Shown piece by piece: positions 16,001 through 44,027 of a stretch of DNA of 64,000 bases. The stretch's first letter is position 1, and each line of letters starts with the position of its first letter. Source of the DNA: Meghimatium bilineatum (Eukaryota > Mollusca > Gastropoda > Stylommatophora > Philomycidae); NCBI GenBank assembly GCA_034231615.1, contig CM067322.1, positions 63,503,032-63,567,031 of the forward strand. The letters run 5' to 3'. Both the position numbers and the translations under genes were made by a program. The notes beneath the pieces were generated by a model. It searched no databases. It saw only the letters and a list, made by a program, of their open reading frames with translations, and was not told the DNA's origin.

Positions 16001-19000
16001 TATCCTTTAGTAAGCTAGTTTACAATTATGTAATTTCTATCCTGACACCGGATAATTGTTAAAAAATTTGTGTTATTGTTTGTGGATGTTTTTGAAGGGC
16101 AATATTTTAATTTTTTTGTTGTTAGAGATATTTAAATAATATTTGTACATGTAAATAAATAATTGAATACTGCATATATTGGTATACGTTTTGTTTGTGT
16201 GTTTGTGGTACCAGACGTGTGAGAAAGTGGTAAAGACATTTTTTTCACACACAAAAAACAACAAATTATAACCACACAAAAAATTGTTATTAAAAAATTA
16301 CCTTTTTTTCTGAATTGTCTGAAGTAAATCATTCTCTGAAGCTAGGCCTAGCTGTATTTTGAATCGCTACAAACATTCAATGTCTGGCTTGTACATAACA
16401 AAATCAGCATGGTGTACTGTATATTCTACAGTGAAAACTAACTACATCCCAAGAATTCATCATCAGAATCATAATCCATAATGATTTTAATGAAAATATT
16501 ATAAAACAAGTCTATAAAACCTGACTCACTTTCATGACGCTGTGCCAGTTTGAAAATGTTGACAGATGTCGTGGATTTTGATATTACAGTGATTAGCCAT
16601 CTTTCTTGGGTCAGTACAATATTGGAAATGGAAGTTAATCAAACAAGAAAGCTATGATTCATCAATTTCAGTTACGTGAATACTAACATTGCTGTTTTCA
16701 GCCTCAAAAGAGCTCCATAGAAACCGGCAGATTCTTCTGCCGAAAGCGCTGTGAACCTTGTAAACAATGAGCAGAAATTTCTGCTAATGACTTGTTAAAG
16801 TATATAATCACATCCCCTTCACTGAAGTTCTCATTGACCAACACCTGCACCTCAGCCTCTACCGCCACTTGCCTCCATTCCTTGCTTGCCTGTCAAGTGT
16901 AAGCATAACTCTTTAAGAAGTTTTGCAATCCATGGGTGGGCGTATCCATTCTGCACCAGCAGCTACATCATGCAACGTACACACGCTTTGTATGATACCC
17001 TCTGCCTGTCCCATCTATGATTTTCCTCTCTTCAGTCTACTACCTTTGACTTTAAGGATTTCCTTAATCCTTATGTTGAAAAATAGAGGTACGCCCTTGT
17101 GGTCACGTTTGAACATAGTTTATATGTTATTATTTAACTTTAATATTTATTTTTCTTGTGAATTATGGGTGATTGCACAATTATTTTTCTTGTGAGTAAT
17201 TGATGAATGTGGCATAATTATTTTTGGAGTTAGTGGTGAATTTGGCATTATTTTTTCAGCCAGCATGTGTAATTTACATATTCATAAAATACTAATTAGT
17301 CTGTCAATATTAAAAAAACTTTGAATTTATAAAAAATCTAACTTTAGAAATGTTATTTTTATTTTTGCTTTATTTCAGATTGATGGATTGTGCTCGTGAA
17401 ATGATCAGAGAATCTCTGCCAATCAAATGTCTTGAAGCAGTTATTCTAGGAATGTATCCTTAATTATAAAGCCCTGGTATAATCTATTATTTTATGATAT
17501 TATTTCTAAACGGTCATGGTGACCTGATTGCCCTGTAATGCAGCAACCATTATTTGTTAATGTTATACATAAAGATATAACCAAATTGATCATCCACAGT
17601 TGAAAGGGTCATATCCATTTGCAAGCCCATTTACCCACTGGCATGAGTACTTTGCCTGTGTGATCATAAATATTATGGCATGTCAAAGTCAGGTTATCAA
17701 AACATTACCCCAAAAAAAGCAAACACATGTGGAAAAACCAGAAGTCATAAAAAATATGGCCGGTTGTCAGAGAAAGTATGGTTAAATTTTAGCTGGGCTG
17801 CTACAGATTAATGTATCGTTCAGAACCATGGACAGTAAATAAACAATTAAAAGACAGAAAGGATGCCTATGATATGTCGATATATAGAAGAATATGGAGA
17901 ATATCACAGAAAGAGAAGTAAATAAACAAAGAGGTTCTAACAATGCTTATAATAAAGAAAGAATATTAAAGGAAATCTACTTCTTCATCGTTCTTCAGTC
18001 AGATATCAGGTTACAGCACCAATAGCTTCAATGAATTATGTGATTCGCTTCAGGTCATCCATGGAACCCCTCAGGTCTGGAAGTAGTGCCATCTCAGTAG
18101 GCCATATTTTCTCCCTCTCTTCTTGGTAGGGTTGACAGGCATGTAGAATGTGTTCTGCAGTCTCTGGGCTCAGTCCACAGTTGCACAGGTCTGTCTCGCC
18201 AAACTTTGGCTTTCGGAACATGTGGCTTCTCAGTCTGTTGTGGTCAGTTCGTAGTCTGAAGATAATGGTTTGTTCCTTGCCTGACATTTGATGGAAGGGA
18301 TCATTTGGTTCTGCAGTTGAGTGCATGTGTTTCCACTTTTTCTTATATTCTGTTTTTATCATAGTCTTATATTCATAGTATTTATTATTACTTTCTATTT
18401 GTTCTAGTAATCCCCCTTTTCTTGCCAGGAGATCAGGTTTTTCTTTTCTAAGTATACCACAGTGACCAGGGATCCACTGCAGTACTGTTTCTTTGGTAGT
18501 ACTGCTGAGGTGTAGTAAGCAGGCCATAAGTTCATTCATGTTCTGTGGATCTTTCAATGCCTCCAATACTGACTTTGCATCAGTTAGAAAGACTATATAT
18601 CTGTTGTGACTCTGCAAGAAATTTATGAGCATTTTGGCTGCCTCTATTATGGCTTCCATTTCTGCTTTGAAATTTGTGGAATGTTTGACTGTGGGTATGG
18701 ATTTTTCCATTTCTTTTCCATCTTGTGTTACTATATATATTCCCACTCCTCCATTTAATACTGCTTCTTTTGCTGATCCATCTGTATATACATATATCCT
18801 TTGGGTATGCTTTCTGTATGTGATTCTTAGTTGTCTCTTTTAGTACTTGTATAGTAGTTTCTGTTTTGGAAATAATGCTTGGTATATTGTCCATACCGGT
18901 AATTCTTGGGAAGTTTTTCATGTCCCAGGTTGGATATGTGTTAAAGGTGTTTAGTGGTTTTAGGTTTTGCAGATCTGTATCTGTGAGCGATTTCTGAAGC

Positions 19001-22000
19001 TGTTTAGCGGAGTGTAGAAAGCTACGGGGTATCTCTTTTGAGTCACTCTTTTTTTAGGTCTGCTTAATCTTTGGTTCATTTGATGGCTTTCCAAACATTT
19101 GAATTTTGCATAATGTGTGAGAATTTTTTCATTTTTTCTTTCTCCTGCTGATGGTAAACTTGTGAATGTTTCCATTTCTGTGATTGGGGTAGTATTCATA
19201 CCTCTTGTTATAATTCTGAGATTGCGGTTTTGTATTTTTGAGATCTTTTGAGTGTTACTCTTGGCTTCAGTGCCCCAAGGTGACATTCCATATTCCAAAG
19301 CTGGTCTTATGTATCCTGTGTGTGCTCTATTTAGAATTTTTCCATTTGCACCCCAATTTGTTCCAGCCAATTTTTTACGGAGTGCTGTCCTCATTATACC
19401 TTTTGTTTAGCACTTGTCAATGTGCTGTTTCCATGTAAGTCTTGGATCAAAAGTGACTCCATGGTATGTAGGTTTCTCATATTTTCACAATATTTGACCT
19501 TTTATGGTTAGTTGGATTTTCTGTGGTTTGGTGGATATGCTAAAGATTGTATTGGTAGTTTTTTTGGACATTAATAGACAGGGCCCATTGGTCTGTCCAC
19601 TTGCCAAATTGTCCATAGTTTCCTGTAACTAATTTTGTTGTGCCTATACTCTCTTCACTGCACCATATTGCCAGATCGTCTGCATACATTGCAGCACTTA
19701 CTTTACATGAAAGGATTTGGCCAATGTCATTCATGAATATAAGGAATAAAGTGGGGATAGAACAACTCCCTGTGGTACTCCATGCTTGAAGAGTTTTTTT
19801 TCTGCTGTGCTTCATCTCAAGCTTCACTGCTGCTTTTTTGGTTGTGCTGGTAGTGTTTTATCTAGCAATACATGTACCTGGTCACTTTATTTTGATGTAA
19901 TTTAAGGAGGAGTCTATCTTTCCACACACAATCAAAGCCTTTAACCATGTCTACCCACACCACTGATGTCTGCTTTTTTCCTGAAAAACATTCTCTACTT
20001 CCTGAACAATTAGTGTGATCTGGTCCTCAGTTGATCTACACTTTCTGAAGCCATCTTGCTGGTTTAGTAGGATTTTATTTCTTTCTAGGAACCACATCAT
20101 TCTTTTGTTTACCAGGCGTTCCATCAGTTTGCACAAACAGCTGGTCAGACTTATTGGGTGATAGCTGTCCACCATGTTTTTTTTGGTTTGCCGTTCTTGT
20201 GAATGGGAATCATTATGGTGGTTTTCCACACCTGTTGCATTAGGCCTCTATTCCAACAATTGTTGAACAACTTTTATTAGTTGTTTTTTTGTTGGTGGTT
20301 CAATATGAATTACCAGTTTGTTTCGTATGTCATCTGGGCCAGGTGATTTCCTAAGTTTTAATACTGCTAGTTCCTCATTTAGTTCATTGATTGTGAATGG
20401 CATATTCATGACATCTTGCTTATCTCTGCTAATCTCTTTTTCTATCTTCCATAGCTGTTTTCTCTTACTTGTCTTCTCCTATTTTCATCAACTTTAGGGC
20501 AGGCAGTACTTTAGTAATTCTGTATAAAGTGATTTGAAGCCTTCTTTACTGTGAGTACATCTCCGCCATTCTCTATAGCCACTTGTGTTATTTTGTTATC
20601 TTCATTGTTGAGCATTTTTGTTATTTTCCATAATTTTCTTCCCTCTTTGTCGGAGTTTAACTTATCTGTTTTTTCATGCCAGCTTTTCCTTGTGTTTGTA
20701 ATTGTGGTTTTTCTTAGTTTGGCTATAGCAACTTTTAGTGATATGTTTCTGTGGATGGGCTTTTTTCTGCTGTGTGTGTCTCTGACCTTTGATACTTCTT
20801 TCTCCAACTCATCCAGTTCATCAGACCAGTACGGCTTGTAATTTATTTAGCACCTCTTGGTATGGTTTGCTTGCCTGCTTGAAGAAGTTCAGAAGCCAGG
20901 AGTTGTGCAGTTTTGTTCACATTTTTCATCCTAAGATTTAGGGTTTTTGTGAAGTTGTCTGTCAGGTCAGCATACTTACTCCAGTTTGCTTTCTTTAAGT
21001 TCCATCTAGATGTGGTTATGGGGCCAGCAAGAGTGTGGTTAATGTTAATGGTGAGTTTCATGGGGCGATTGTCACTTCTGACAAGCTGCTCCAGCATTTC
21101 CCTGTAAGTTATTTTGGCTAGAGTATCTGCTGCAAAGGCTAGGTCTGGGGTTGAGGTTGTGTGCCATCTTCTAGAATAGCAAGTTGGGTGGTCTTCAGGT
21201 TCATTAAGAAGTTGAAATTTCACTGCACACTGCCAGTCTTCCACTTCTTCTCCTCTAGGATCTTGTTCTGTATATCCCCAACTCTGTGAGTGACTGCTAA
21301 AGTCATCAATCACAAGACAGTTATCTTTTTCTGTGTTGATTGTGTGTAGAGATAGGCTCTTGTCTTGTGGACAGTAATAACTATATACTGTAACCTCTTT
21401 AGTTGGAAGGGTTAAACAGGCTCCAATTATTTCAGCCTGTTCTTTAGTGTTTACTCAGATTGCAGAGGCAGTTATATTGTTTTTAACCAGTATAAAGACT
21501 CCTCCTTTGTGTTTTGTGTCTCTTTTCTCTATCATTCTGAAATGTTTGGTATCCTCGGATGTTGAATCTATTGTTGTTTGTTAGGTGTGTTTCCTGTATG
21601 CATGCTATATCAATTACCTCTTTGTGTAATCAATTTGCAAGTATAGTTTTGTTATTGTAGACACCTTCAGCATTCCACTGCAATATTTTCAAGTGCTTAT
21701 TCTTGTCTTTGGAGTCTGCATCATGATCTTTATGTGTATTTTTTGAACCAGTAGTTATTTTCCTCTGATCTTTTTTTCTGGCTCCACAAATTGAGACAGA
21801 GGTACCACCAGTCACTGAGGGTGGACTCCTTCGAGACTTAGAGCCCAGCACTTCATCCGCCTGATGGGATTCCACAGATGAAGCACCAAAAGGAATAATC
21901 TGCAACCTTTTATTTTACATATGAAGTCATTGCTTGGCACTGTGGTTTTCAGCCTTGACAGTCATGCGCTGCTAGACTATTTTGTACCTTTCGGTCCAGT

Positions 22001-25000
22001 GTCTCCATCTTCTTACTTTTAGGTCAGGATGTGCTTCCTTATCCCTTATCCATCCAAGGATTGTCCACAGGGCAGTGGAGGTTTCATTTTGGAGTTTTTC
22101 TTCTCCTAGACAACCTGCCTACCAGGGTTAATGAGCACCATCTGCCCGGGATATAGTCAGAGTTTCCCTCTCCTAGGATAATTTTTTTCTTGCCAGCAAT
22201 TTATTATCCTTCCTCTGTGGTTTGTTTCTTGTGATCTAAGGTACCTCCAACTCAAGAATGATAATTTAAGAGTATTCCTCTCTGTTGTTCCAATATCCAT
22301 AATTCCCCCTTGCCCTACATAAACCTTATCCCTCCCCTCCACCCTGCACATTTCTGGAGTGGTGTCAGTGACACCCAGGACACATTAAAACACATGACAC
22401 CTTGTTGAAGACCATTTCTTGAGGGTAAAGTCAAAGGGAAGTGAGCAAGAGTTAGACAGATATACAAGTGGGAAGTGACATCACAAGATAGACAGGTTAC
22501 AGTCTAGCAGAGTGCACCACCAAAACAAAACAAGTGACAGGAGATGTTGGAGGTATGTTGCAGCCAACCAAATTAGTTGTGTCATCTCTACTCTTTGATG
22601 TTTCAGAGGTTTGACAGCACTTGACTAAATAACCTGAATCAAAACTAAACCTAATCCAGACATTTTTTTCCCCTAAGATGGTGTAACTGTAATCATAATT
22701 TCTACTGCAATCTTCTGTATTTGAATGGGCTATGAATAAGAACAATAGCTTGTTCTGCACTTTGTCTAAAAAAGTTGTTGTTGCCATTATTTCTCAGAAA
22801 TAAACAACTCATGTTAGAGTGAAAGCAATCAGTTTGTTGTTTTTGTGTGTAAGACAAAACACGCTTTTTTTTAGTGAAATAGGAAGTGGAAGTATTATCA
22901 TGTGTAGCAGTAAAGAATTTGATTACATAGAAACTAATATTAGCGAGTCATGAAATATAATTGATTGAAGTATGATCATTGAAAACTAAAAACCAAGATA
23001 TCAAATATTAGTCCCAAAAACTTCTTTATATTGACAATATATTTGTGATTGATCTGGAAAGAATACAGTGTATTATACTCAGTCTTATACTAAGATAAGA
23101 TTTGGAGAGTGTCTATTATTGAGATAATGTTGTTGAGATGTTGTAGAGTGTCTTTTAATGAGATGTTGAAGTGTAATTTATTGAGTTGATATGTTGAAGG
23201 GTGTCTATTATTGAGATAATGTTGTTCAGATGTTGTAGAGTGTCTTTTAATGAGATGTTGAAGTGTAATTTATTGAGTTGATATGTTGAAGGGTCTGTTT
23301 TATTGAGATAAAGATGCTGGAGTGAGTCTTCTGCTACTTTAAGAGTGTCGTTTATTGAGATGAATGCTGCAGTGTCTTTTACTAAGATTAGATTTTGGAG
23401 AGTGCCTTTAATTGAAAGGAGATATTAGAGTAGGTATTTTTTTATTAAAGTTGTGAGTGACATGATAGCTGATTCCCTTAGGGATGCTGAAATTCTGAGA
23501 ACATGCTACTTCTTAGGATGGAATATAGATGCTTTGTTTATAATGACTGTTGGTAGTCGATCTTCTACTTCTTGCTATTATTTCCATAACTATTATAGAT
23601 ATCTGACCAATGGTATGATGGGCGTGGAGCGTTTCACCCTTAGTTTTAAGACAGTTTTCAAGGGCCACCTACACAGACACATCGTCCTAGGAATCTCCTA
23701 TAGAGGTTGTTATGGAGCCATTGGAATGAGCAGACGAAATGATCTCATGTTTAAACCAGTACAGTTCAAGGTGAGAGTATTAACCTGATCGACATTTAAA
23801 CTTGAGATTTACATATAGAACTTGATCAATTGGTCAACTATCCCTGTTCATGCCGTTGAGATGTATGCATACCTGCCAACTTTTTAAAGGATGATTACAT
23901 ATAATGCCTTTCATATATCCGTAATGATACATAAAATTATGTATTTAGTAATAACACTGCGAACAAAAAAAAAGTTGTTTTTTTTACAAGTATAAAATTA
24001 GTCAATTCCTACTGAAAATGGGTTGAGAAAAACGAATATGACATCAGAAAATGTTTATTAGCTCTAGTTTTTGAGTTATTGTAATTTCAATATTTGTATT
24101 AAAAATCCTATTTCTTATTGTTTCCTTTTCCTCTTGTATACCACTTCTGGAGCTTCTCTTGTGACATTCCAGCAGTAGTCAGCAAGCATGGATGTATTCC
24201 ACTTACCCTGGTACCTTTTTTCCATCAATGCAATGTCTTGGTGGAAACGCTCCCCATGTTCATCACTTACTGCACCACAATTTGGAGGGAAGAAATCAAG
24301 ATGAGAATCCAGGAAGTGGATCTTAAGTGACATGTTGCAACCTAATTGTTGATATGCTGTCAGAAGTTCATTAATAGCAACAGGATAGTTCTCACTTCTA
24401 TGATTGCCCAGGAAATTTTGTACTACACATTTGAAAGATTGCCATGCACCTTTCTCATTCCCATGAATAATGGCATCAAAATGCTCATCTTTCAACAGTT
24501 CCTTTATCTGTGGGCCTACAAATAATCCTTCCTTTATTTTACCATCACTAAGGTAATGAAATTTTTTCCTCAAGTACTTAAATGCCTCTCCCTCCCTATT
24601 CATGCCCTTGATAAAGTTCTTCATTAGCCCCAATTTAATATGAAGAGGAGGTAGAATTATTTTATTTCTATCAACCAAAGAAATTTGCTGTACATTCTTT
24701 TCACCAGGCTCCATAACCTTCCTATCAGGCCAAGTTTTCCTCATGTAATGAGAAGTTCTCTGTCGACTGTCCCATTCACACAGAAAGCAACACTATTTTG
24801 TGTAACCTAATTGCATGCCAAGTAAAATTGCAATAACTTTCAAGTCTGCACAAATCTGCCACTGATGATCATCATATTTTATTGCTTTAAGAAGTAATTT
24901 CATATTTTCATAAGTCTCCTTCATGTTGACAGCATGGCCTATAGGGATAGAAGGTAATGAATTGCCATTGTGTAGCAAAACTGCTTTCAAACTTAACTTT

Positions 25001-28000
25001 GATGAGTCAATGAATAACCTCCGCTCTTGTTGTATGTGCTCTATTTTCAAAGCTTCCATAAGCCCATTAACATCATGGCAAGCAACAATGCTATTATTCA
25101 TTGTGAAAAATGGAGTTAGAGATTTCTGACGTTCTCTGTACATAGACACCTTAACATTTTTATCCAGGAGATTCCACTGCTGAAGTCTTGATGCAAGAAG
25201 TTCAGCTTTTGTTTTAGATAAGTCAAGATCTCGAATTAAGTCACTTAGTTTATTTTGAGAAATTCTATGTAGAATATCAACAGAACCTATTGGTGTGAAT
25301 TGAGTATCTTCCTGTTCAAACTCAGGTTGTATTTCTTGACCACAATCTGCATCAAGCTCTATAACTTTCTGGTTGGGTGAGATAGGAACAGGCAGATCTT
25401 TTCCATGTGGTACTGGCCGTATAGCTGTTGGAATATTGGGGTAATTCAAAGTCCACTTCTTCTTTTTAGATATTCCGTGTTGGAGAGGAGGCACCATACA
25501 AAAATAGCAGTCACTTACATGATCTCTCGGCTCTCTCCATATCATAGGAATCGCGAAAGGCATTGACCGCACTTTGCCATTCAGCCAACCACAGAGTTTC
25601 ACAGTACATGTAATACAGCAAATGTGAGGTGCCCAGGGTTTGTCTTGATCACCTATCTTACAGCCGAAGTAAAGATGATATGCAGTTTTAATTAAAGGTG
25701 TAATTTTCCGTTTTTGAGACGACAACGTCCCCTCGCCACAAACATAGCAAAAATTGTTAGCACTATTAACGCACTTTCGTGACATTATGGAATCCAATCT
25801 TTACACAAATTTAGACATTTATAGCACTGGAAAATAAAATATATATATACTACTTGAAAATATTAATTATATACACATGTTGAAATATGTGGTTTGTTTT
25901 TTACATCAACACACGATTTAAACAATATAGCGGCCATTGAGAGAAGTCGCACAGTGTCAACATGCATTCGTCGCTGAATCAATTTTTCGTAAGAAAAATT
26001 TTCCACTTTTTTCGACACAATAAACAAGGAATATCACAACAATAAGAGCAAACTGAGAATTTTTAATGTGTTATTCGTTTTTCTCACCACATTTCAGTAG
26101 GAAATGATTATTTTCATGTCTGTAATTTTTTATGTGTTGCGCAGTGTAATTACTGCAGTTCCTCCCTCTCTGGTTCACATTGAAATAAAAATTATCATTG
26201 ACAGCACAATAGATATGTTTTCAATTTTGGGGGGGGGGGGGGGTTAGGCCTTAACGAAGACTGGTCATTCACCATCTTTGTGTGAAAATCCACCTTTTTT
26301 ATGAGAATTTTGATGGCTTATTTTTGTAAAAATTCATGGGGTGGGGGCCCATCTCAAGAAGTTATGTTCTAATTTCCTGGGGGGAGGGGAGAGTCTAGTT
26401 GTCCTCGATTGATGATTAAAATATAGCATGCATTTTTTCTTCTTTTCAATCCCCAAGAATTGCAAGCAATTAACTCTTACTTCCTATGTGCAGTATGTGC
26501 TTACTTTATGCCCAGGAGACTTCAGCTTTTGGCTTAGTGCGATGCCTATTGAAGAAGCCTTCTACTTTACTTAGCAGGCAAAAGAGAGTAATTTTTGTTA
26601 CAAAATGTAATGTGCACTTGATTATCGTGAATCATATATTTTTTTAAGAAATTGACAATAATCAACATCAATTTTCAGGTTTACAATATACTGTAAATAT
26701 CAATATTCTATAGGCCTATTAGTAGACCCAATTGTAACACTTTGTTGCAGTTTCGCATATCAGGTATGACATTTTTTTACCATAGTGCAAAAATAACTGT
26801 ATTAATAAATTACAGCATAGGCCTTATAATTAGATACGGTAATTATTAAAACATGCAGATTATTTTTAAGTTTAAAAAAGGACTCGCCAATTAAGTCTTG
26901 TAAATACATTAGTTACAACTAGAACTGATAGTAGGCCTATAAATTTTGGTCTCTTGAATTGGGGTGTACTGAAAGCTTAGTATTATTCAAAATACACATG
27001 ATTGTCAATGTCACAAATAAAAACTGTGTAGTAGGCCTAATACTATATAAATTATTATGATTAGGACAAATAGAAGGAAAACATACAGAGGCAGCCTGTA
27101 TATTTGTAAAACTTATCTTTACTATTCACTGCAACACACTTTGCTCATACAGTTCCTAAGCATGTCACATGTCAGGTGTTCTGTTCAGAGACAAGAATTT
27201 GATTGGTTGTGATGGTATATTACAACTTGTGTTCAGGATTACCACACTGAAACATTTTACTTCAAATAATTTAAATCTGGTGTTATAAATGTTTTGTTGT
27301 AATCAAAGAAGTGATTTCACTTATTTGAATTTTCTTGGCTTCTTAAAAATGAGCTGCACAAATTAACTTCATCATCATCATCAATTACCGTCTCTGCAAC
27401 AAAGGTTGTCTGCAACAGACCTTCAACGTCCCCTGTCTCTAGTTTTGGTGATGTACTCTGCAAGACTGTAACCTGCCCATCTTGTGAAACTACACTCCCA
27501 CTTGTATCTCTGCCTACCTCTTCCTCACTTCTCTTTGACTTTACCCTCAAGCAAGGTCTTAAATAAGGTGTCATGTCTTTTAATCTGTCCAACATATTTT
27601 ATTTCACGATCTTTATTTCTCTTAGTAATTATTTCTTCATATTAAGTGTTTATAGAACCTCTTTGTTTGTTTTCTTCTCTTTCCATGATGTTCTCCCTAT
27701 TCTTCTATGTACCCACATCTAAAAAGGCATCAATGTTGTCTTCTAATTGTTTGTTTACTGTCCATATTTCTGAGCCTTACATCAATATAGAATAGATAGT
27801 AGCATTTTTATAATTCTCACTTTTAACTTGTTTGTAATTTGTTTAGATGTTACTATTTTCCTCATGTTATTGAAGGTACTTTTAGCCATTCCTATCTCCT
27901 TTTAACTTCTGTTTCACATCTGCAATCATTTGTTACTATGTGTCCAAGATAATGTTTTACTTGTTGTAGTTTCTCTCCATGTATTTTTATGTTTAGCTCT

Positions 28001-36700: not shown

Positions 36701-39700
36701 TCTTATACTTTCTCATATCCTAAAATTTAAAATAGTATAAATCAAGGCAATAGACAGAAGCTGTGGGAAATGAATGTGGAGTGGTTCAAATCTCCCTTTC
36801 CTATGAAAATATATCAAAACATTTAGTGTTAAGAGACAATTAGAAAGGAAGTAAAAACACTCTCTATCCACTTCCTTAGCAGTTTTTCATAAAGAAATAT
36901 AAAAAATTCTCAGAAGGGAAATTTCATAAGTCTTTTAATGCAAAGTTGTATTATTGGCCCTGCTAATAGCAACTAAAGAATATTGTAACATTATTTTATT
37001 TAAAAGAACATTGTATATGAAACTAATAAATATTAGATAAGATATGAAACTAATAAACATTAGATAAGATATGAAACTAATAAACATTAGATAAGATATG
37101 AAACTAATAAACATTAGATAAGATATGAAACTAATAAACATTAGATAAGATATGAAACTAATAAACATTAGATAAGATATGAAACTAATAAACATTAGAT
37201 AAGATATGAAATAGCCTGTGTGTTGTTGAGGTCCAGAGGTGAAGCAAAGAATAGTAGGACTGCTACCTTGCCATGTTATATATTTATACTGGTATATAGG
37301 CGGTGACTAAAATGATTTTTTGAAGAGTGGGGTTTGTTGTTCTATCCCACAAGATCAAAGTGACACAGAAACCATGCTAAAGTCAGATGTCATATTCCAA
37401 AGAAGAATATGTCGCAGCTACGCTGTAAACTATGACACAACACATTTCATTTGGGGATCTCCCTAGCTTAGTAGTTAAGCTGTTTGTCTTGTGTTCAAGA
37501 GGTCATGGGTTTGAATTTGGCTCATGTCCTCTTGTGTTTAAAGTGGATTTTTTCGGAGATCCCTGTGGATTATCGCTTGAAGCTACGGAGTTACATGCTA
37601 TGAGTGGTACTCTCAGCAGGTGGCGTGCAGCTTCATTGAGTGACGGAGTACATATGGGAAACAAAGTACAGGGAAATCAATCCTCTTTGTCGTTTGAACC
37701 TATTTTTAAAAAAATATTTCATTCTCTTACCTATATGTTGATAATCTGTAAGGGTTTGAGAACTAATGTAAAAGAAGAAGAAAATATGAAACATTTGAAA
37801 TAAGTAAATGGGAGAGGGGGAGAGAATAATGGGAGAGAGGGGGAGAATAATAGACAGGGGAAGGAATGAAAGAATTCAAATGATTGGAAATTCTTGCAGG
37901 CTTTGCTGGTAAACTTTTCAAAGTCAAGTGTAGAGGAGGCAACCCATGAATTGGACACACATGGTCGTAGAATGAAAAGTTTGGTAAGTTCATTATACTG
38001 TATGAATATCTTTTATAATTCTTTATATGTTTTGGTTTACATTATAAACATGTTTTATAAATTTATAATTAAATTAAAACATTCTGACCCAGTAAGTTTA
38101 ATGAAAGAAACACAGAAAACAATAGACATTCAGAACCCAGAACAATGGATTCATGTCAATAACTGATTGGTCTGCTTTCACAGCCACCATCAAAGCAGAT
38201 TATTGTGTCTATAGAGGCTTAAAGAATATGCAGACAAAATATCTGATCAGTTGTTTGATGCCTGTGGGGATATATGTTCTAACTACAAAGCTGAAATAAC
38301 AGCACTAGAAGTTGCCTTGTACCAGTTGAAGACTATATGTGATACTTTTTCATCAGAAGTCCACATTGTGATTTTTACAGAATCTTTATCCGCTCTTCAA
38401 GCACTAGAATGTGATGGAAGTTGTAAGCCTGAGCTAGTTCAAATATATCACCATTCCAACTAGTTGCTTACATCTTATGAAGTCAGCATTGTTAAGCAGT
38501 GGATTCCTGACCACTCAAACACACATGGCAATGACAAGACATACAGACTGGCAAAGAGGGAGAGCAAGACAAGAGCAGCCATACACACAAATGATCATGC
38601 ACAAAATTAAAAGGATGTGGAAATCTGTGAACAAAGAGAATTTGATGAGCCATCTGCTCATCTGTTTGTAATTTGCATTCTTTTCATTATGATCTACAGT
38701 AGTATTTTGCTGGCTTGACTAATTAGTGCTACTGTTCTATAGTTAGTACATTTTTGAAGGTCTCCTTTCTTTGGCAAGGGTATGTATACTGACTTTTTCC
38801 ATTCTTCCGGCTATATTCCACTTTTCCATATCTTGCAGCATAAAGTATGGTTTATTTGAACACTGGAATCTCCACCGGCTTATATAATCTCTGACGTTAC
38901 TCCGTCGTTACCAGAATCTTTTCTTTTTTTCAGATTTCTGATTTCGTGATGATTGTTCTGTTTCCGTCTATTCTGTCAGAACAAGAAGAATTAATGGGAG
39001 AAATTATATATATATATAAGGACAAATTATATTGTTTCTGATTGCAAAAAGTGAAGAAGACCTTCAAAATTTAATTAAAGTAGTAGTCAAAGAAAGTAAA
39101 GAGAAAGGCCTCTTCCTAAATATCAAGAAAACAGAAGTAATGGTTATTTCAAAGAAAGAAAATAACACACCTTGCAAGATCATAGTGAATGATATAGTAT
39201 TAAAACAGGTCCACCAATTCAAATATCTAGGTACAATTATAACAGCAGATGGAAGAAGTTCAACAGAAATAAGATGCAGAATAGGACAGGCAAAAACAAC
39301 ATTCAGAAAAATGAAAAATATACTATGTAATATGACCTTGTCATTAGAGGTGAGAAAGAGAGTTCTGCAGTGCTATATAACCCCTCTACTAACATATGGG
39401 TGCGAGTCTTGGACAATAAACAAACTGGAAAGTGGGAGATTGGAGGCAACAGAGATATGGTTCTACAGAAGAATGCTGAGAATACCATGGACTGCCAGAA
39501 AAACTAATGTAGAGGTGTTAAAAGAGTTAAATGCGAAACGGACCTTAATCAACAATATAAGAAAAAAGCAATCTTCCTTTTTTTTGGCCACTTCATGAGA
39601 CAGGCAGGTTTAGAGAACATAATCACAACAGGCAAGATTGAAGGCACCAGAGACAGAGGGCGACAACGTGAGAAAATATTAGTTTGACAACCTGGCACGG

Positions 39701-42700: not shown

Positions 42701-44027
42701 CCCACACCTCCGCTTAATGGCAAGTGTGGATGCTATCAACCAGCCTCTAACTGGTAATAGATAATTAAACTGTTTCTAAAGTCATAAGGGGCATACCTCA
42801 CAAGAACTTTAGATATAGGTATGTTCCAGGCGAACGAAAGAAGAATACATCACAAGCACTTTGGAGTCATTCTTAAATTTTGATCACACTGTTGTTTGGC
42901 AAAACCTGAGCATTTCTTCATGTGTTTTTAAGTCCTACAAAAATCTCCTATTCTCATCACAGTAGTAAGCTGCCATTTGCTTGCTTTCTCTCTATCATTT
43001 CTGTTCTAAGCTAAACTTGACCACCCCTTGCCAAATTTCTCCTCTAGACTTCACTGCATCTTGCAAAGATTTCTGCTTCTAGATTAAGCTGCCTCTCTAG
43101 CCTGACTTCACGCTTCATCTTTTATCCTGCTTGACCATTGGTCCCTGAAAAGTCTCAACACCAAAGTCATGATCTCAGTCGCTGATCCTGCATCTGCCAT
43201 AGTTCTCTGATAACCTTACATAAGAGCAAGACATTTGTCTTTAGATGGGTTTAACTATATCTCACAATCATGTGTGTGATCTTATGTCATTTCCAACAAG
43301 ATCCACATAGTAACAATGAAGCCCTATTTTTTATATACATCGCCCGTCAACTCATTGAAACACTTGCCTTAAGCATATATGTGTCCAGGAGCTAATTGTT
43401 TGACAGTGAAGGTATAATCCTCAGCATGTCTACAGCTGGGATGATCAAGGGTGGAAGGGAATAAATAAAAATATGTCCAGACCTAGTATCATCATCACTG
43501 GGACATATTCAGTATAAATAAATCTATAATGGGAGTTGTAGGAATGTAGTGTTAAGGTACTCCCGAGTCAACCAGCAAACCCAGATTTCAAGTTCACTCA
43601 TTATTCGTGGTTTCAAATAAGAATTACTCCATGTTTCACCCAGCCACAAGGAAGTGTGGTACCAGGGTTCATACTCAGTACAGGTCAAGAAATAGTACCA
43701 TAAGTTCTGAAATAGTGCATTAGGTGATGCTAATCAGTCAGTTTCTGGTTAACCACTGCGAAGGAAATTGGGCATTTATCGGAAAACTATTTCCTGTAAC
43801 ATTGGTGGTTTATAAATCAGCTTACCCTTTATATTTTAAAATTTACAACAATAAATCCATGTCATTTTTTCATCTTGAGTTATGCATATTTCTCACTCAA
43901 CCTACACATTAGACTACATTATGTATTTCTTCTTCACAGTATGCAGCTAATGAAGGACACAAGGGAGTCTTCAACTTCCAAAATTTGCGATGAATCTGCA
44001 GAAACGGCTTACCAAATACGAGTGTAA
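3460..44027 (+). CDS. VASH: Vasohibin (VASH1/2 family) tubulin tyrosine carboxypeptidase, ten coding exons
   Basis: Vasohibins, with the small partner SVBP, remove the C-terminal tyrosine of alpha-tubulin on microtubules (family knowledge). Coding segments: 3460-3657, 10417-10508, 13003-13059, 17379-17453, 23599-23770, 30410-30455, 34940-35019, 37900-37983, 40296-40405, 43940-44027. Joined they give 1002 nt, 333 residues plus TAA, with consistent phases and GT-AG introns. Visible landmarks: FWVNKSGFPLDDQTWDRMWK in the N-terminal region; YNHTGTQFFEIKK at 98-110; PIKCLEAVILG with C133; RHIVLG with H168; GMSRRNDLM with S185. The C-H-S spacing (35 and 17 residues) equals that of human VASH1 (C169, H204, S221). 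The protein ends YQIRV like vertebrate vasohibins. It is somewhat shorter than human VASH1 (365) and VASH2 (355), mainly in the N-terminus and the tail. VASH1 versus VASH2 cannot be assigned; an invertebrate probably has one pre-duplication gene. SVBP is not in the window. Confidence 0.95.
3690..3795. repeat. Interspersed repeat family C, copy 1
   Basis: TTGATTAGAAACTAGCATCA, then CACAAGGGACATCCCCATAA and the following ~60 bp, match 50112-50225 (TTGGTTAGAAACAAGCATTA, CACATGACATTCCCATAA). It begins just after the exon 1 donor of VASH. Nature unknown. Confidence 0.6.
3800..5075 (-). pseudogene. RTE-like LINE reverse transcriptase, broken
   Basis: Read from 5075 down: linker MSTRRKNKHKIDEYQKIHKE ... 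WLNKKCTEIE, then KKPRATECEKHNKISLMSQI, EQYGFIESKGTNN, LHFIDYTKAFDKVKHSQII (RT motif with catalytic D in YTKAFD), GVRQGCVLSPDLF (shifted frame), and NNLRYADDTVLINKSEDDLQ (YADD box). Frameshifts and stops separate the pieces. It lies antisense in VASH intron 1. The matching endonuclease half is at 8285-8760, beyond an I-like LINE. Confidence 0.85.
5076..8262 (-). mobile_element. I/jockey-like LINE with RNase H, decayed
   Basis: Read from 8262 down: end of an APE endonuclease (HAIDMQKVTIWHTGGKYTIY, NIYSPPQTT, TGDCNGH); RT piece 7165-7410 (SNKPPDQPKSYYPISLTSCL); RT piece 6823-7050 (EGLPQGSALSCTLFLIYISD, LYADDLTIC); HPTYLGITLD near 6600; RNase H 5639-6370 (SNYKAKITALKVFLYHL, IIVIFTDSISALHTLE); a CRMC...H..FEC knuckle near 5270; a 3' end near 5080 with GGATCAAAAACCAACCAACC. 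RT followed by RNase H suggests the I clade. Many stops and shifts; 5' truncated in the endonuclease. A related copy is at 38085-38660. Confidence 0.82.
8285..8760 (-). pseudogene. RTE-like LINE endonuclease N-terminal part
   Basis: Read from 8760: NITTWNVRSLAQSGKLDKHQ (start of an APE-type endonuclease, W-N-V-R-S-L), then WNGTGAIQLDKFKVIYSGGQ, GIGVVLDTETGKTVKGF, SDWIILVKL and TNIVQV. Same strand and family as 3800-5075. The reading stops near 8285, where the I-like LINE takes over. Confidence 0.8.
9050..9880 (+). mobile_element. Mariner-like transposase N-terminal fragment and tail
   Basis: Codons at 9196-9357 resemble the helix-turn-helix half of mariner transposases (VVESTVSDWAQRFKVS, then a degraded HLATS..Q), and continue across stops with SVSKRSAIEMI. 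Near 9775 the sequence TTACACTTTAATAAAGAATT and the following TTACTTTATGACATCCCCTT resemble the 3' end of mariner-type elements. No catalytic domain remains and the 5' end was not found. Confidence 0.5.
9984..10052. repeat. (TG)n(TA)n microsatellite
   Basis: A short GT run passes directly into about 25 TA repeats in VASH intron 1. Confidence 0.97.
10417..10508 (+). CDS. VASH: VASH coding exon 2 (residues 67-97)
   Basis: The acceptor TTTTTTTCCTAG ends at 10416. The 92 nt encode a segment starting VPIPQPP and ending KLRKIQNYMIELQ, matching the vertebrate proline-rich linker and following helix (IPIPSVP ... VQRYIRELQ). The donor is GTAACC at 10509. The exon leaves two bases (CA) of the Gln codon, which the first base of the next exon completes. 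Confidence 0.92.
10635..10790 (+). repeat. Interspersed repeat family F, copy 1
   Basis: GAGCAATTAGCTCTTACTTC, then CCCAGAAGATTCCAACTCTC and GAAGAAGCCTGATACTCAGT, match 26455-26590 in the same orientation. No coding potential. It lies in VASH intron 2, the other copy in intron 5. Confidence 0.65.
10985..11230 (+). pseudogene. LINE 3'-end fragment (tail type T1)
   Basis: Encodes GRPRGQPQKRWTIKIKEVT, then IRWPSPENSSTPDGERQQR. The basic motif GRPRG.P.KRW is typical of LINE C-termini. The end (GGCCATCTCCAGAAAACTCT and on) recurs inverted at 12068-12187 and 59740-59830. Confidence 0.65.
11382..12800 (+). mobile_element. Mariner-type DNA transposon with ~100-bp terminal inverted repeats, dead
   Basis: The left end 11382-11485 (GGAGGCATGTTCAAATGAAA ... 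AAGTACACATCAATGAACAG) is matched by the complement of 12697-12800 over about 100 bp at roughly 75-80%. TA precedes the left end at 11380; the right TA has mutated. Inside are decayed mariner transposase pieces: LTKHKEEQMG, YHAEGNEFLLHIMAGDKL (first catalytic D kept in GD), RTQHEMETSW, KVMLMPLFDLLLDFKEPNVN, LGKLHTTIKN, VILLYNNAHLH (the D of the usual LxDNAxxH box is N). Many stops. A LINE tail has inserted at 12068. Confidence 0.85.
12068..12187 (-). mobile_element. 5'-truncated LINE tail nested in the mariner, with 11-bp target duplication
   Basis: TCCTGGATCAT occurs at 12057-12067 and 12177-12187, flanking about 109 new bp. The insert carries GCATCAGGGGTAGAAGAGTT and CTCTGGAGATGGCC, the T1 tail found at 11100-11200 and 59740-59830. 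On the minus strand it ends in an A-rich stretch before the duplicated target, as expected for target-primed insertion. Removing it rejoins the mariner frame RTQHEMETS...KVM. Confidence 0.85.
13003..13059 (+). CDS. VASH: VASH coding exon 3 (residues 97-116)
   Basis: A 57-nt exon between acceptor CTCTTACAG and donor GTAAGA. It encodes YNHTGTQFFEIKKKRPIA, nearly identical to the vertebrate YNHTGTQFFEIKKSRPLT. Phases 2 in and 2 out fit both neighbours exactly: the length (1 + 54 + 2) was predicted from the flanking exons before it was found. It lies 185 bp upstream of a LINE insertion. Confidence 0.96.
13245..13544 (+). mobile_element. I-like LINE 3' tail, ~300 bp, with 12-bp target duplication
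   Basis: GACAATAATCAC occurs at 13233-13244 and again at 13545-13556. The right part, AAGGGCAAGAGCCCATGGAC then CGCTGGATCAGCAACCAACC, is the 3' end seen inverted at 5079-5150 and 55105-55165. Hence a short 5'-truncated LINE insertion at the left edge of the minisatellite. Confidence 0.75.
13545..14017. repeat. 43-bp minisatellite, 11 copies
   Basis: Units start every 43 bp from 13545 with GACAATARTCACAATAGATT and continue ATGTTGAAATGTCCTAGAAC ATT. Copies differ by only a few substitutions (A/G at the eighth base of most units), so the array is young. It lies in VASH intron 3. Confidence 0.96.
14018..14869. other. No gene recognised (intron 3)
   Basis: Short broken frames only. The part 14050-14280 looks like old repeat sequence, but I cannot name it. 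Confidence 0.4.
14870..15060 (+). pseudogene. LINE C-terminal tail
   Basis: Frame pieces KAKGRPRKRWIENIK and RVTHLSLE, then CTCCCACCCTTATGGCAAGT and GATCAACC. The same 3' end is at 42595-42770, and inverted at 2795-3000. Confidence 0.7.
15140..15345 (+). pseudogene. Mariner transposase C-terminal scrap
   Basis: With shifts it reads HSQYSPDLY, FFPYLKRDLKGINF, matching the mariner block HSPYSPDLAP.DF.LFP.LK..L.G..F. Only this block is visible. Confidence 0.55.
15450..15965 (-). pseudogene. LINE RNase H domain, C-terminal part
   Basis: Reads ESRVFAVTTSSMTMEI, then MALEWISSQRAVRTCILSDS, MSMFMKVQKGL and VTFIFVPRHIGVWGNKRADF LAS. These are RNase H motifs (E in TMEI, D in LSDS, H and D in RHIGVWGNKRAD) of the kind in LINE polyproteins. 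The 130-codon frame 15474-15866 is nearly intact. The 5' part of the domain may be at 16600-16935. Confidence 0.75.
15966..16599. other. AT-rich insertion between two RNase H fragments
   Basis: No coding motif. It separates the two minus-strand RNase H pieces and may be an insertion, but no target duplication or inverted ends were found. Confidence 0.35.
16600..16935 (-). pseudogene. LINE fragment, possible start of an RNase H domain
   Basis: Read from 16935: WRQVAVEAEVQVLVNENFSE then GDVIIYFNKSLAEISAHCLQ. GDVIIYFNKS resembles the DVIIYTDGS start of RNase H, with the catalytic D lost (FNKS for TDGS). With 15450-15965 it would be one domain split by about 630 bp of AT-rich sequence. Confidence 0.45.
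17379..17453 (+). CDS. VASH: VASH coding exon 4 (residues 116-141), catalytic cysteine
   Basis: Acceptor GCTTTATTTCAG, then 75 nt encoding LMDCAREMIRESLPIKCLEA and VILG. Cys133 in PIKCLEAVILG corresponds to the catalytic Cys169 of human VASH1. The donor is GTATCC at 17454, weaker than consensus. The AT left at the end joins the A of exon 5 to make the Ile of the conserved GIYLTN. Confidence 0.95.
17795..17995 (+). pseudogene. RTE-like LINE, post-RT fragment
   Basis: Reads MYRSEPWTVNKQLKDRKDA, then MSIYRRIWRIS and INKEVLTML, the block after reverse transcriptase (SW....L...LE..E...RRM.RI.W) also seen at 39390-39520. Confidence 0.65.
17998..22360 (-). mobile_element. Nearly full-length I/jockey-like LINE with RNase H, decayed
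   Basis: Read from 22360 down: an unplaced N-terminal piece with MCRVEGRDKVYVGQGG (possibly ORF1); endonuclease 20843-21905 (HLKILQWNAEGVYNNKT, VIDDFSSHSQSWGY, WHTTSTPDLAFA); RT 19540-20500 (PISLTSCLCKLMERLVNKRM, QQDGFRKCRSTEDQI, MYADDLAIW); post-RT 18960-19394 (RPALEYGMSPWG); RNase H 18036-18746 (FKAEMEAIIEAAKML, VFLTDAKSVLEAL, LQWIPGHCGI); terminal zinc knuckle DLCNCGLSPETAEHILHAC. Frameshifts occur at several places but each domain is recognisable. It lies antisense in VASH intron 4 and is related to, but distinct from, the copy at 5076-8262. Confidence 0.88.
22420..22560 (+). mobile_element. LINE 3'-tail fragment (T2)
   Basis: AAGTGAGCAAGAGTTAGACA, then GACAGGTTACAGTCTAGCAG and ATGTTGGAGGTATGTTGCAG CC, match 40075-40205. 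It abuts the I-like LINE. Confidence 0.6.
22560..23094. other. No gene recognised (intron 4)
   Basis: AT-rich, with no protein motif or repeat recognised. Confidence 0.35.
23095..23450. repeat. Degenerate repeat with two good 92-bp copies
   Basis: The segment starting GTGTCTATTATTGAGATAAT at 23109 is repeated at 23201, 92 bp later, almost unchanged. Both consist of smaller GAGTGTCTTTTANTGAGAT-like units that continue in decayed form to about 23450, just upstream of VASH exon 5. Confidence 0.85.
23599..23770 (+). CDS. VASH: VASH coding exon 5 (residues 141-198), catalytic His and Ser
   Basis: Acceptor CTATTATAG, then 172 nt encoding YLTN, ERFTLSFKTVFKG, HRHIVLGISYRG, YGAIGMSRRNDLMFKP and VQFK, ending at donor GTGAGA (23771). 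H168 and S185 fill the positions of human H204 and S221. This is the most conserved part of the family. A complete DNA transposon starts only 184 bp downstream in intron 5. Confidence 0.97.
23955..26146 (-). mobile_element. Complete 2.19-kb DNA transposon with terminal inverted repeats and TAA target duplication
   Basis: The left end CACTGCGAACA (23955) mirrors the right end TGTTGCGCAGTG (ends 26146). Further in, TTCCTACTGAAA and GTTGAGAAAAACGAATA at 24007-24040 match the complement of 26070-26103. The imperfect inverted repeat thus spans about 90 bp. TAA flanks both ends (23952-23954 and 26147-26149). One minus-strand gene (24115-25797) fills the interior. It lies in VASH intron 5. Confidence 0.88.
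24115..25797 (-). pseudogene. Transposase-like protein of an orphan animal family, one in-frame TAG
   Basis: The frame starts at ATG 25797 and runs in one frame to TAA at 24115-24117, about 560 codons, broken only by TAG at 24793-24795 after LGMQLGYTK. Beyond it the same frame continues CCFLCEWDSRQRTSHYMRKT. Visible: N-terminal Cys pairs (CYVCGEG, CCITC, CYFC) that could bind zinc; LSDLIRDLDLSKTKAELLAS; the hallmark FLDSHLDFFPPNCGAVSDEH then GERFHQDI, MEKRYQGKW and ADYCW. I recall this C-terminal block from many uncharacterised arthropod and cnidarian proteins. The inverted ends argue it is a transposase. No classical DDE triad was assigned. Confidence 0.8.
26223..26243. repeat. Poly-G run
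   Basis: An unbroken G tract of about 14. Similar runs occur at 51652, 58036, 61646 and 61929. Lengths are likely unstable or uncertain in assembly. Confidence 0.9.
26455..26590 (+). repeat. Interspersed repeat family F, copy 2
   Basis: AAGCAATTAACTCTTACTTC, CCCAGGAGACTTCAGCTTTT and GAAGAAGCCTTCTACTTTAC align with 10635-10790. Confidence 0.65.
26591..27299. other. No gene recognised (intron 5)
   Basis: AT-rich, several short AGGCCTA-containing stretches, no frame or repeat assigned. Confidence 0.35.
27300..28345 (-). pseudogene. RTE-like LINE, RT C-terminal half to 3' end
   Basis: Read from 28345: YSPYIEIRRGVRQGCILSPS LFNIYTE, MPGLKIN, a damaged YADD region followed by LFLLAESAHKLQRLIDQ, then SEIWTVNKQLE near 27780, and a C-terminal open piece 27317-27595. 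Stops in every frame. Confidence 0.75.
28346..29824. other. No gene recognised (intron 5)
   Basis: AT-rich sequence without long frames, splice-bounded exons or repeats that I can name. Confidence 0.35.
29825..29990 (+). repeat. SINE-like family A, copy 1
   Basis: GCTGAAGACGGATGTGTCTG, GGACTACATCCTGCTAGAAA and ends TTTGAGAATGAATGCTGAAG AAG. The core is shared with seven other places in the window: plus-strand copies at 30860, 34365, 47855 and 59618, and minus-strand copies at 50850, 51012 and 51910. Confidence 0.85.
30410..30455 (+). CDS. VASH: VASH coding exon 6, 46-nt microexon (residues 199-214)
   Basis: Acceptor GATTCCCCAG and donor GTAAGT bound 46 nt encoding SLSELVFDFERCYRK plus one base, matching TLSELVLDFEAAYGRC of human VASH1. 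The lone T joins AC of exon 7 to form Tyr214. The exon lies between two intronic SINE-like copies. Confidence 0.93.
30606..30985 (+). repeat. SINE-like family A, copy 2, with a unique 5' part
   Basis: 30860-30985 (CAGAATTGGTGCGAATAAAA to TTTGAGAATGAACGCTGAAG) is a family A copy. The preceding 250 bp (CAGCTGAGTCGACTGGAGGA inside) has no second copy here but looks like another repeat rather than coding sequence. Confidence 0.65.
31270..31620 (-). pseudogene. LINE C-terminal fragment
   Basis: Read from 31620: RKTNTDVRKDLNI, GGKIMEGKVPGNRTRGRPRL, HVIGRSLAAAQNQE. The GRPR motif and its position resemble other LINE tails in the window. Confidence 0.6.
31740..32440 (-). pseudogene. RTE-like LINE endonuclease C-terminal part and linker
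   Basis: Read from 32440: VKLIIGDLNAKVGRERRPDE then GPFGLGQQNERGEILLTFCL GNDLVI (APE endonuclease motifs GD.N and the start of the SDH region), a fourfold VNDLVI duplication, SDHKLLVADVKIRLKRL, then linker WRCRTSSIH and MTPDKLKNNIRDSI. It covers the part missing from the 3800-8760 copy. Confidence 0.8.
32143..32216. repeat. 18-bp tandem repeat, four copies, inside the LINE frame
   Basis: CACAATTACTAAATCATT repeats four times without change. The unit is six codons, so on the minus strand it repeats the residues NDLVIV before SDH without shifting the frame. Confidence 0.95.
32441..33426. other. No gene recognised (intron 6)
   Basis: AT-rich; 33030-33300 is rich in TATGTGTATAT-like simple sequence. 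Confidence 0.35.
33427..33865. repeat. Inverted repeat with ~88-bp arms and microsatellite-rich centre
   Basis: The left arm 33427-33516 (GTTTGTGTATGTATATTTGT ... TTCCTAGTATACTTGTATTA) is the complement of 33776-33865 with about one mismatch. Between them lie a long (TG)n(TA)n run, 160 bp of loop sequence, and a second (TA)n(CA)n run. Confidence 0.88.
34365..34490 (+). repeat. SINE-like family A, copy 3
   Basis: GGTAAATAAAACAGTGACAC AACACATTTTCATTCTCTG, CAACATCCTGCTGGAAATCA and AGATCCAGCAGAAGTTTGA match the family core. 450 bp upstream of VASH exon 7. Confidence 0.8.
34940..35019 (+). CDS. VASH: VASH coding exon 7 (residues 214-240)
   Basis: Acceptor CTTTATTTACAG, then 80 nt encoding SHTVKKVKVG, LPIVHDQHSYDIIYWK. 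It aligns without gaps to human WHVLKKVKLGQSVSHDPHS and the following EQIEWK. The exon ends AAG before GTCAGA, a weak donor at 35020. Homology and the phase-0 start of the next exon support this end. Confidence 0.93.
35020..35639. other. No gene recognised (intron 7, 5' part)
   Basis: AT-rich. 35440-35560 (ATGGCAATGATGGATGTGCC ... CACAGCATGTACACGCAAAC) is more complex and may be old repeat sequence. Confidence 0.3.
35640..36120 (-). pseudogene. LINE post-RT fragment
   Basis: Open piece 35684-35941 on the minus strand (MDNLYATGETVKQFHMSCLH RIPGDI) fits the LINE block in which a finger-like helix is followed by RRILGI, then W..HV.RR. Downstream WKQDDMDHVVRRGK and TGIRQRRK continue it. Confidence 0.5.
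37014..37211. repeat. 27-bp satellite, 7.3 copies
   Basis: Units of 27 bp start GATATGAAACTAATAAACAT and end TAGATAA. They are nearly identical. The complement (TTATCTAATGTTTATTAG) resembles the decayed satellite motif at 54.9-59 kb. A family D element follows directly. Confidence 0.95.
37215..37445. repeat. Interspersed repeat family D, copy 1
   Basis: GATCAAAGTGACACAGAAAC and GCTACGCTGTAAACTATGAC AC.ACACATTTC match 55285-55490 and 57530-57735. In all three places a tandem repeat lies just upstream. Confidence 0.6.
37445..37650 (+). repeat. tRNA-derived SINE, family S2
   Basis: The head reads CCCTAGCTTAGTAGTTAAGC (A-box like), with GGTCATGGGTTTGAATTTGG (B-box like) 45 bp later, as in RNA polymerase III promoters. 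The body (GGATTATCGCTTGAAGCTAC, GCAGGTGGCGTGCAGC) is shared with 3225-3315. It lies 250 bp upstream of VASH exon 8. Confidence 0.7.
37900..37983 (+). CDS. VASH: VASH coding exon 8 (residues 241-268)
   Basis: Acceptor TTCTTGCAG and donor GTAAGT bound 84 nt encoding ALLVNFSKSS, VEEATHELDTHGRRMKSL. It has the same length as, and is recognisably related to, the vertebrate helix SVLDVERLGRDDFRKELERH and ARDMRLK that closes the folded core. It is more diverged than exons 3 to 7. Confidence 0.9.
38085..38660 (+). pseudogene. I-like LINE RNase H to 3' part
   Basis: DPVSLMKETQK, then FDACGDICSNYKAEITALEV, VHIVIFTESLSALQALECDG, and MKSALLSSGFLTTQTHMAMT. It is the same family as 5323-6370 on the other strand (SNYKAKITALKVFLYHL, VIFTDSISALHTLECDG). 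The catalytic D of FTDS is E here. Frame breaks follow. Confidence 0.8.
38660..38990 (-). pseudogene. RTE-like LINE, RT N-terminal part (inverted half of a twin-primed copy)
   Basis: Read from 38990: RKQNNHHEIRNLKK, DSGNDGVTSEIIQAGGDS, EEWKKSVYIPLPKKGDLQK, CTNYRTVALISQASKILL, IIMKRMQITNR. This is the start of the RT domain, on the opposite strand to the adjoining 39005-39800 piece. Confidence 0.78.
39005..39800 (+). pseudogene. RTE-like LINE, RT C-terminal part to tail
   Basis: The frame 39032-39598 encodes the end of the YADD region (LIAKSEEDLQNLIKVVVKES), VHQFKYLGTIITADGRSSTE, CYITPLLTYGCESWTIN and RRMLRIPWTARKTNVEVL. A frameshift near 39585 leads to GHFMRQAGLENIITTGKIEG TRDRGRQR. It ends near 39780 with WRAMTT. 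It is the best-kept RTE reading frame in the window. Confidence 0.87.
40060..40240 (+). mobile_element. LINE 3'-tail fragment (T2)
   Basis: AGACAAGCAAGAGGTAGGCA, GACAGGCTATAGTCTAGCAG CGTG, GTTGCAGCCAGCC. It matches 22420-22560 and ends in GATGATGATGATA, 55 bp before VASH exon 9. Confidence 0.65.
40296..40405 (+). CDS. VASH: VASH coding exon 9 (residues 269-305), C-terminal tail
   Basis: Acceptor ATTATTTCAG and donor GTAAGA bound 110 nt open in the required phase (SKSFMLDNCCSLKVLPSSDS, then IRTLLPSPNINGKIQK). There is no clear sequence match, but the vertebrate tail is disordered and variable. The call rests on splice sites, exact phase continuity from exon 8, and the two leftover bases that fit exon 10. 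Confidence 0.78.
41190..41355 (-). repeat. tRNA-derived SINE, family S1, copy 1
   Basis: On the minus strand the head reads CTCTGTGGCGAAGTGGTACA (A-box TGGCGNAGTGG) and GGTACCGAGTTCGATCCCCG (B-box GTTCGATCC), then GTTCAGAAAGCAATGGCAAA and ATATTGCCTAGAAAACCAC. The same B-box and body occur at 55640-55770. Confidence 0.85.
41690..41945 (+). repeat. Interspersed repeat family E, copy 1
   Basis: CCTGGTACCTTACATCCTGG, TGGCTAGATGAACCATGAGA and GAATTTGCTGGTCAGCACG match the complement of 43555-43690. The 5' 130 bp has no second copy in the window. Confidence 0.65.
42540..42770 (+). pseudogene. LINE C-terminal tail
   Basis: Shifted frames give KKSRGGLKKKWINNIM and RHTHGLS-like debris, then CTCCCACACCTCCGCTTAAT GGCAAGTGTG. 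Same 3' end as 14870-15060. Confidence 0.65.
43555..43690 (-). repeat. Interspersed repeat family E, copy 2
   Basis: The complement contains CCCTGGTACCACACTTCCTT GTGGCTGGGTGAAACATGG and GGGTTTGCTGGTTGACTC, matching 41800-41945. 250 bp upstream of VASH exon 10. Confidence 0.65.
43940..44027 (+). CDS. VASH: VASH coding exon 10 (residues 305-333) with stop
   Basis: Acceptor TTCTTCTTCACAG is followed by one base completing Thr305 and then MQLMKDTRESSTSKICDESA, ETAYQIRV and TAA at 44025-44027. The final YQIRV equals the vertebrate VASH C-terminus, which confirms both the frame and the end of the gene. Confidence 0.92.

What the first reader, a model, noticed from the sequence alone, without database searches (positions are those of the whole stretch)
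23955..26146. An orphan animal protein family caught inside a complete inverted-repeat transposon
The protein ending in the FLDSHLDFF...SDEHGERFHQDI block is, from memory, annotated only as hypothetical in many invertebrates. Here its gene lies between imperfect ~90-bp inverted repeats with CACTGCG/CGCAGTG tips and TAA flanks. That identifies the family as the transposase of a DNA transposon and gives its ends and probable target site.
Basis: partly seen in the sequence, partly recalled or inferred. Interest (0 to 1): 0.82.

Follow-up and report, generated by a model that had tools for sequence, protein, structure and literature searches.

The report
Chapaev3-type DNA transposon, one stop codon
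The window holds one copy, with both ends, of a cut-and-paste DNA transposon that fits a kind already described in animals (Chapaev3), its transposase gene interrupted by a single stop codon, so it is real but ordinary.

Summary
A 2,192-bp element (23955-26146) is bounded by imperfect inverted repeats: 106 of 137 aligned pairs identical over about 140-151 bp, alignment score 50 against a shuffle maximum of 26, 0 of 1000 shuffles reaching it. Tips are CACTGCG...CGCAGTG, with TAA on both sides. The ends are complete, but this copy cannot make full-length transposase without readthrough.

"Orphan family" is not supported. The anatomy fits Chapaev3 as published: CAC...GTG ends, a TWA duplication between A and T (here A-TAA...TAA-T), similar size (silkworm Garfield: 2,289 bp, 556 aa), C(2)C, LH and H(4)H motifs in order, and an N-terminal cysteine pattern compatible with the "Chapa" zinc finger. 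No alignment to a named Chapaev3 protein was possible: I reached none, Pfam gives no match, the window's genome is not held, and both structure models were too poor to use. Membership rests on anatomy and motifs. Best reading: a new, disabled member of a known kind.

The parts
23952..23954 (.). left copy of the putative TAA target site duplication, preceded by A
   Evidence: only 3 bp fits as direct repeat among lengths 2-11
23955..24105 (+). left terminal inverted repeat, tip CACTGCG (about 151 bp aligned)
   Evidence: 106 of 137 aligned pairs identical with the right arm, 0 of 1000 shuffles as good
24115..25785 (-). transposase gene, 556 codons plus stop, one in-frame TAG at codon 331; no intron needed to read it
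25498..25749 (-). N-terminal cysteine/histidine-rich stretch (residues 13-96): CxxC, CxxC, W...H...CxxC, compatible with the Chapa zinc finger
   Evidence: 1 of 20000 shuffles of the first 140 residues has the pattern, which was written after seeing the sequence; Chapa domain described in PMC4411706, its residue pattern not shown there
25006..25008 (-). D260, proposed first catalytic aspartate (LFIDSS)
   Evidence: assignment by eye, inference
24844..24846 (-). D314, proposed second catalytic aspartate (ICADLK)
   Evidence: assignment by eye, inference
24793..24795 (-). in-frame TAG stop, codon 331, between the second D and C(2)C
24778..24789 (-). C(2)C motif, C333-F-L-C336
   Evidence: motif set from PMC4079192 and PMC12730594
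24640..24645 (-). LH motif, L381-H382
24241..24258 (-). H(4)H motif, H510-GERF-H515
24220..24222 (-). E522, proposed catalytic glutamate (ALMEKRY)
   Evidence: assignment by eye, inference
26007..26146 (-). right terminal inverted repeat, tip CGCAGTG on the + strand (about 140 bp aligned)
26147..26149 (.). right copy of the putative TAA target site duplication, followed by T

Best explanation
A single insertion of a Chapaev3-type (CMC supergroup) cut-and-paste DNA transposon. Its transposase would bind the long inverted repeats, cut at the CAC/GTG tips with an RNase H-like DDE catalytic domain stabilised by a C(2)C...H(4)H zinc site, and join the element into an A-TWA-T target, which leaves a 3-bp TAA duplication. 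Shown: the ends, the TAA flanks, the gene and its motifs, and the stop codon. Inferred: catalysis, zinc binding, the assignment of the D, D and E residues, the target preference of this family and its membership in Chapaev3. The copy is probably unable to make its own transposase, since the TAG lies before the proposed E.
For: Inverted repeats far above chance. A-TAA...TAA-T flanks exactly as reported for Chapaev3, where the paper says all Chapaev3 elements examined had TWA duplications between A and T. 5'-CAC and GTG-3' ends. 2,192 bp and 556 codons against 2,289 bp and 556 aa for Garfield_BM and 2,451 bp and 78+484 aa for Merrow_PM. C(2)C, LH and H(4)H in the published order. Readable in one exon, said to be the case for most Chapaev3 transposases. 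N-terminal Cys/His pattern where a Chapa zinc finger is reported for Chapaev3.
Against: No alignment to a named Chapaev3 protein: none of the collections gave a relative and the one accession tried (EF710639) is not held. No match to Pfam, which includes DUF1280, the Pfam family said to hold animal Chapaev transposases. The motif order C(2)C-LH-H(4)H-E also occurs in 489 of 20000 shuffles of the whole protein, so it is moderate evidence on its own. Both AlphaFold2 models, made without an alignment, are unusable (mean pLDDT 39.6 and 34.9), so the RNase H-like fold is untested. One copy only; no empty site.
Confidence: 0.85

Rival explanations
1. An EnSpm/CACTA element rather than Chapaev3: same CMC supergroup, tips CACTR (recalled), 3-bp duplications.
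For: CACTG tip and 3-bp duplication are also compatible with EnSpm: PMC12730594 uses 5'-CAC..GTG-3' ends and 3-bp duplications to class elements as EnSpm, and C(2)C and H(3-4)H are shared by EnSpm, Mirage, Chapaev and Transib.
Against: The specific A-TWA-T context, the size, and the N-terminal Cys/His pattern fit Chapaev3; PMC4411706 says the Chapa domain is not encoded in transposons other than the Transib/Chapaev group. No Pfam Transposase_21 match. None of these excludes EnSpm alone.
Confidence: 0.06
2. A separate, not yet named lineage inside the CMC/Transib (CMCT) clade that has the same ends and duplication as Chapaev3.
For: No model in Pfam reaches the protein; no direct comparison with named Chapaev3 was possible.
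Against: Every feature that could be compared with published Chapaev3 traits agrees.
Confidence: 0.07
3. A host gene, or domesticated transposase, with chance inverted repeats around it.
For: The reading frame is open over 556 codons apart from one stop, so decay is slight.
Against: Inverted repeats reached by 0 of 1000 shuffles, tip-to-tip alignment, TAA on both sides; the stop disables the frame; the element lies in what looks like an intron of a vasohibin gene.
Confidence: 0.02

Closest known systems
Chapaev3 transposons (Merrow, Garfield, Conan and Repbase Chapaev3 families)
   Same: CAC...GTG ends, TWA duplication between A and T, about 2.2-2.5 kb for Garfield_BM and Merrow_PM, about 556-562 aa, C(2)C, LH, H(4)H, Chapa-like N terminus
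   Different: Sequence distance to named families unknown (no copy reachable); Garfield and Merrow genes have two exons whereas this one reads in one; this copy has an in-frame stop
Chapaev (sensu stricto)
   Same: CMC supergroup motifs, CAC...GTG ends, Chapa-type zinc finger reported
   Different: 4-bp duplications recalled for this group (PMC4079192 says generally 3-4 bp for Chapaev as a whole); here 3 bp. Two subgroups carry a RING finger, not recognised by Pfam here
EnSpm/CACTA
   Same: CMC supergroup, C(2)C and H(3-4)H, CAC..GTG ends and 3-bp duplications
   Different: No Transposase_21 match; TWA context and Chapa-like N terminus fit Chapaev3 better
Transib / RAG1
   Same: C(2)C and H(3-4)H between second D and E; Chapa domain said to be shared
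   Different: Transib duplications are 5 bp (recalled); no Pfam or PDB match to RAG1 or Transib

Membership tests
[quoted passage not shown]
   criterion
Chapaev3 | 3-bp TWA target duplication, A before and T after | tested here: met
   A-TAA...TAA-T in the one copy available; criterion. No empty site seen
Chapaev3 | C(2)C, LH and H(4)H motifs in the transposase | tested here: met
   C333-C336, L381-H382, H510-H515 in order; the order with an E also arises in 489 of 20000 shuffles
Chapaev3 | N-terminal Chapa zinc finger | tested here: inconclusive
   Cys/His pattern at residues 13-96; no Chapa model or sequence was available to compare with. Likeness to the RAG1 N terminus is recalled only
Chapaev3 | sequence similarity to / clustering with named Chapaev3 transposases | not testable with these tools
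   no named Chapaev3 sequence reachable; no relatives found in the collections searched
RNase H-like DDE transposases | RNase H-like fold with D, D, E | tested here: inconclusive
   single-sequence models with mean pLDDT 39.6 and 34.9; no fold search was run on them. D260, D314, E522 assigned by eye
Chapaev as Pfam DUF1280 (PF06918) | match to the Pfam model | tested here: not met
   0 families for both ORFs at E up to 10 and for the read-through at E up to 1. PMC3985635 equates DUF1280 with Chapaev transposases; whether it covers Chapaev3 is not stated in the passage seen
EnSpm/CACTA | match to Pfam Transposase_21 | tested here: not met

The most novel reading that the evidence does not exclude
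The protein belongs to a distinct, unnamed lineage of the Chapaev/Transib/RAG1 (CMCT) clade that has kept a RAG1-like Chapa zinc finger and Chapaev3-like ends, and so would add a branch to the history of the V(D)J recombinase.
Probability: 0.06. Interest if true: 0.5.

Novelty: new member of a known kind. Interest (0 to 1): 0.18.

Why it matters
If the filing is right, the gain is mainly one of annotation: proteins with this C-terminal block, which Pfam does not recognise, can be named Chapaev3-type transposases, with their ends and target site. It adds one decaying copy to a superfamily known for horizontal transfer between animals and distantly related to RAG1. It raises no new biology on present evidence.

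Tried and rejected
Inside the window, tblastn of the read-through gave itself and three weak hits (E 0.33, 5.5, 8.3), and blastn of the ends gave themselves, each other, and otherwise nothing better than E 0.30. CACTGCGAA recurs at 43754 but without further likeness.

Relatives elsewhere: viral contigs with the C-terminal ORF (3 stretches matched a pattern, 0 confirmed) and the N-terminal ORF (8 matched, 0 confirmed); two degenerate motif patterns gave one contig each, L002 and L003, neither a relative (best E 0.26 and 2.0). Genome contigs with the C-terminal ORF: 50 stretches, 1 confirmed by the tool, L001, which I reject: 33% over 60 residues around the shared word KDEHFDAI in what looks like a RHGE-type phosphatase (the name is recalled). 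phages, C-terminal ORF: 4 records at E 0.2, 24% identity, rejected as chance. plasmids, C-terminal ORF: no match at E up to 1. The N-terminal ORF was not searched in genome contigs, phages or plasmids. PDB by sequence: 4 and 2 chains, best E 0.59 and 1.3, rejected.

Structure: two single-sequence AlphaFold2 jobs failed to give a usable model; I ran no fold search on them because the matches would mean nothing.

Papers: literal protein strings found in 0 papers (four strings). Yuan and Wessler 2011 is not held. PMC3630058, PMC13282606 and PMC4202319 (passages only) gave nothing decisive. Considered and set aside: that the element ends 8 bp further out, because the inverted symmetry continues there with one mismatch; no direct repeat of 2-11 bp was tested for that outer boundary by script, and by eye the next flanking bases (TGTATTT and GCAGTTC) do not match.

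Full report
What is there. The element spans 23955-26146, 2,192 bp, G+C 35.9% against 35.8% for the window. Its ends are inverted repeats that start at the tip CACTGCG and align for 151 and 140 bp, 106 of 137 aligned pairs identical. The local score is 50; 1000 dinucleotide-preserving shuffles gave mean 14.7, SD 2.5, maximum 26, and none reached 50. TAA flanks both sides, and 3 bp is the only direct-repeat length that fits among 2 to 11. In random pairs of window positions a shared 3-mer arises in 2.1% of draws and the A-TWA / TWA-T arrangement in 0.016%.

The joined flanks with one TAA read AGTAATAATTACT, a palindrome around a single central base (from the flanks printed). This means that the inverted symmetry extends 8 bases beyond the tips with one mismatch. 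I read that as a palindromic A-TWA-T target plus three further matching bases, but it leaves the outer boundary dependent on the TAA repeat and the CAC tip until other copies are seen.

The gene. The minus strand reads 556 codons from ATG at 25785 to the stop at 24117-24115, without an intron, with one TAG at codon 331. The two ORFs that the ORF list shows are one frame. The stop falls between the second proposed D and the C(2)C motif, so a terminated product would lack the proposed E.

Motifs. C(2)C at 333-336, LH at 381-382 and H(4)H at 510-515 are in order. [quoted passage not shown] My assignment of D260, D314 and E522 is by eye. As a control, C(2)C-LH-H(4)H-E in order with loose spacings occurs in 489 of 20000 shuffles of the protein, so the motif set alone is moderate evidence. 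The N terminus has CxxC (13-16), CxxC (57-60) and W...H...CxxC (83-96); 1 of 20000 shuffles of the first 140 residues has that pattern, but the pattern was written after seeing the sequence. PMC4411706 says Chapaev3 transposons carry a complex zinc finger named Chapa, shared with Chapaev and RAG1 (passages seen). My impression that the stretch resembles the RAG1 N terminus is recalled and untested.

Comparison with the known kind. PMC4079192 reports for Chapaev3 the CAC and GTG termini, TWA duplications, and an A on the 5' side and a T on the 3' side in all Chapaev3 elements examined. The copy here has all of these. Sizes agree: Garfield_BM 2,289 bp with 78+478 aa, Merrow_PM 2,451 bp with 78+484 aa; Conan_ET is shorter, 1,865 bp and 461 aa. 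Most Chapaev3 transposases are said to be encoded by a single exon. The same work includes Chapaev3 in hosts from Hydra and a leech to lamprey and tenrec (names in the legend and table), so an invertebrate host is no surprise.

What does not help or speaks against. Pfam-A matches neither ORF up to E = 10, nor the read-through up to E = 1. It includes DUF1280, which PMC3985635 equates with animal Chapaev transposases. No relative was found in viral contigs, genome contigs (C-terminal ORF only), phages or plasmids (C-terminal ORF only); these collections hold viruses, prokaryotes and plasmids, so absence of an animal transposon there means little. The PDB sequence search found only chance matches. 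Structure models without an alignment had mean pLDDT 39.6 and 34.9 and say nothing about the fold. A direct sequence test of Chapaev3 membership was therefore not possible, and the confidence of 0.85 rests on anatomy and motifs.

Surroundings. A Vasohibin domain match (E 5.8e-21, Pfam residues 121-178 of 245) lies in the ORF 23429-23788 on the plus strand, and a GT that could be its splice donor lies at 23771, 184 bp before the element. The element thus probably sits in a vasohibin intron, antisense to the gene. No downstream exon was sought.

Verdict. A new, disabled member of a known kind; interest 0.18.

Noticed in passing
window 23429-23788 (+): Exon of a vasohibin gene (Pfam Vasohibin, E 5.8e-21) with a possible splice donor at 23771; the transposon lies 184 bp downstream, antisense.
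   Followed up: partly
window 3803-4177 (-), 18036-18839 (-), 20843-21454 (-), 39020-39598 (+): Broken retrotransposon pieces: reverse transcriptase, RNase H, endonuclease-reverse transcriptase and again reverse transcriptase (the last is below Pfam's cut-off).
   Followed up: partly
window 45589-46978: Tandem array of a 27-bp unit, 51.5 copies, 95% matches, open in several frames. Further 27-bp arrays of unlike sequence at 37015-37211 and 62797-63268.
   Followed up: no
window 43754-43762 (+): A second CACTGCGAA on the plus strand, preceded by AAC rather than TAA; no further likeness to the element ends was reported.
   Followed up: partly
window 23947-26154: The target site with one TAA is a 13-bp palindrome around one central base (AGTAATAATTACT); the symmetry outside the tips reaches 8 bp with one mismatch.
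   Followed up: partly
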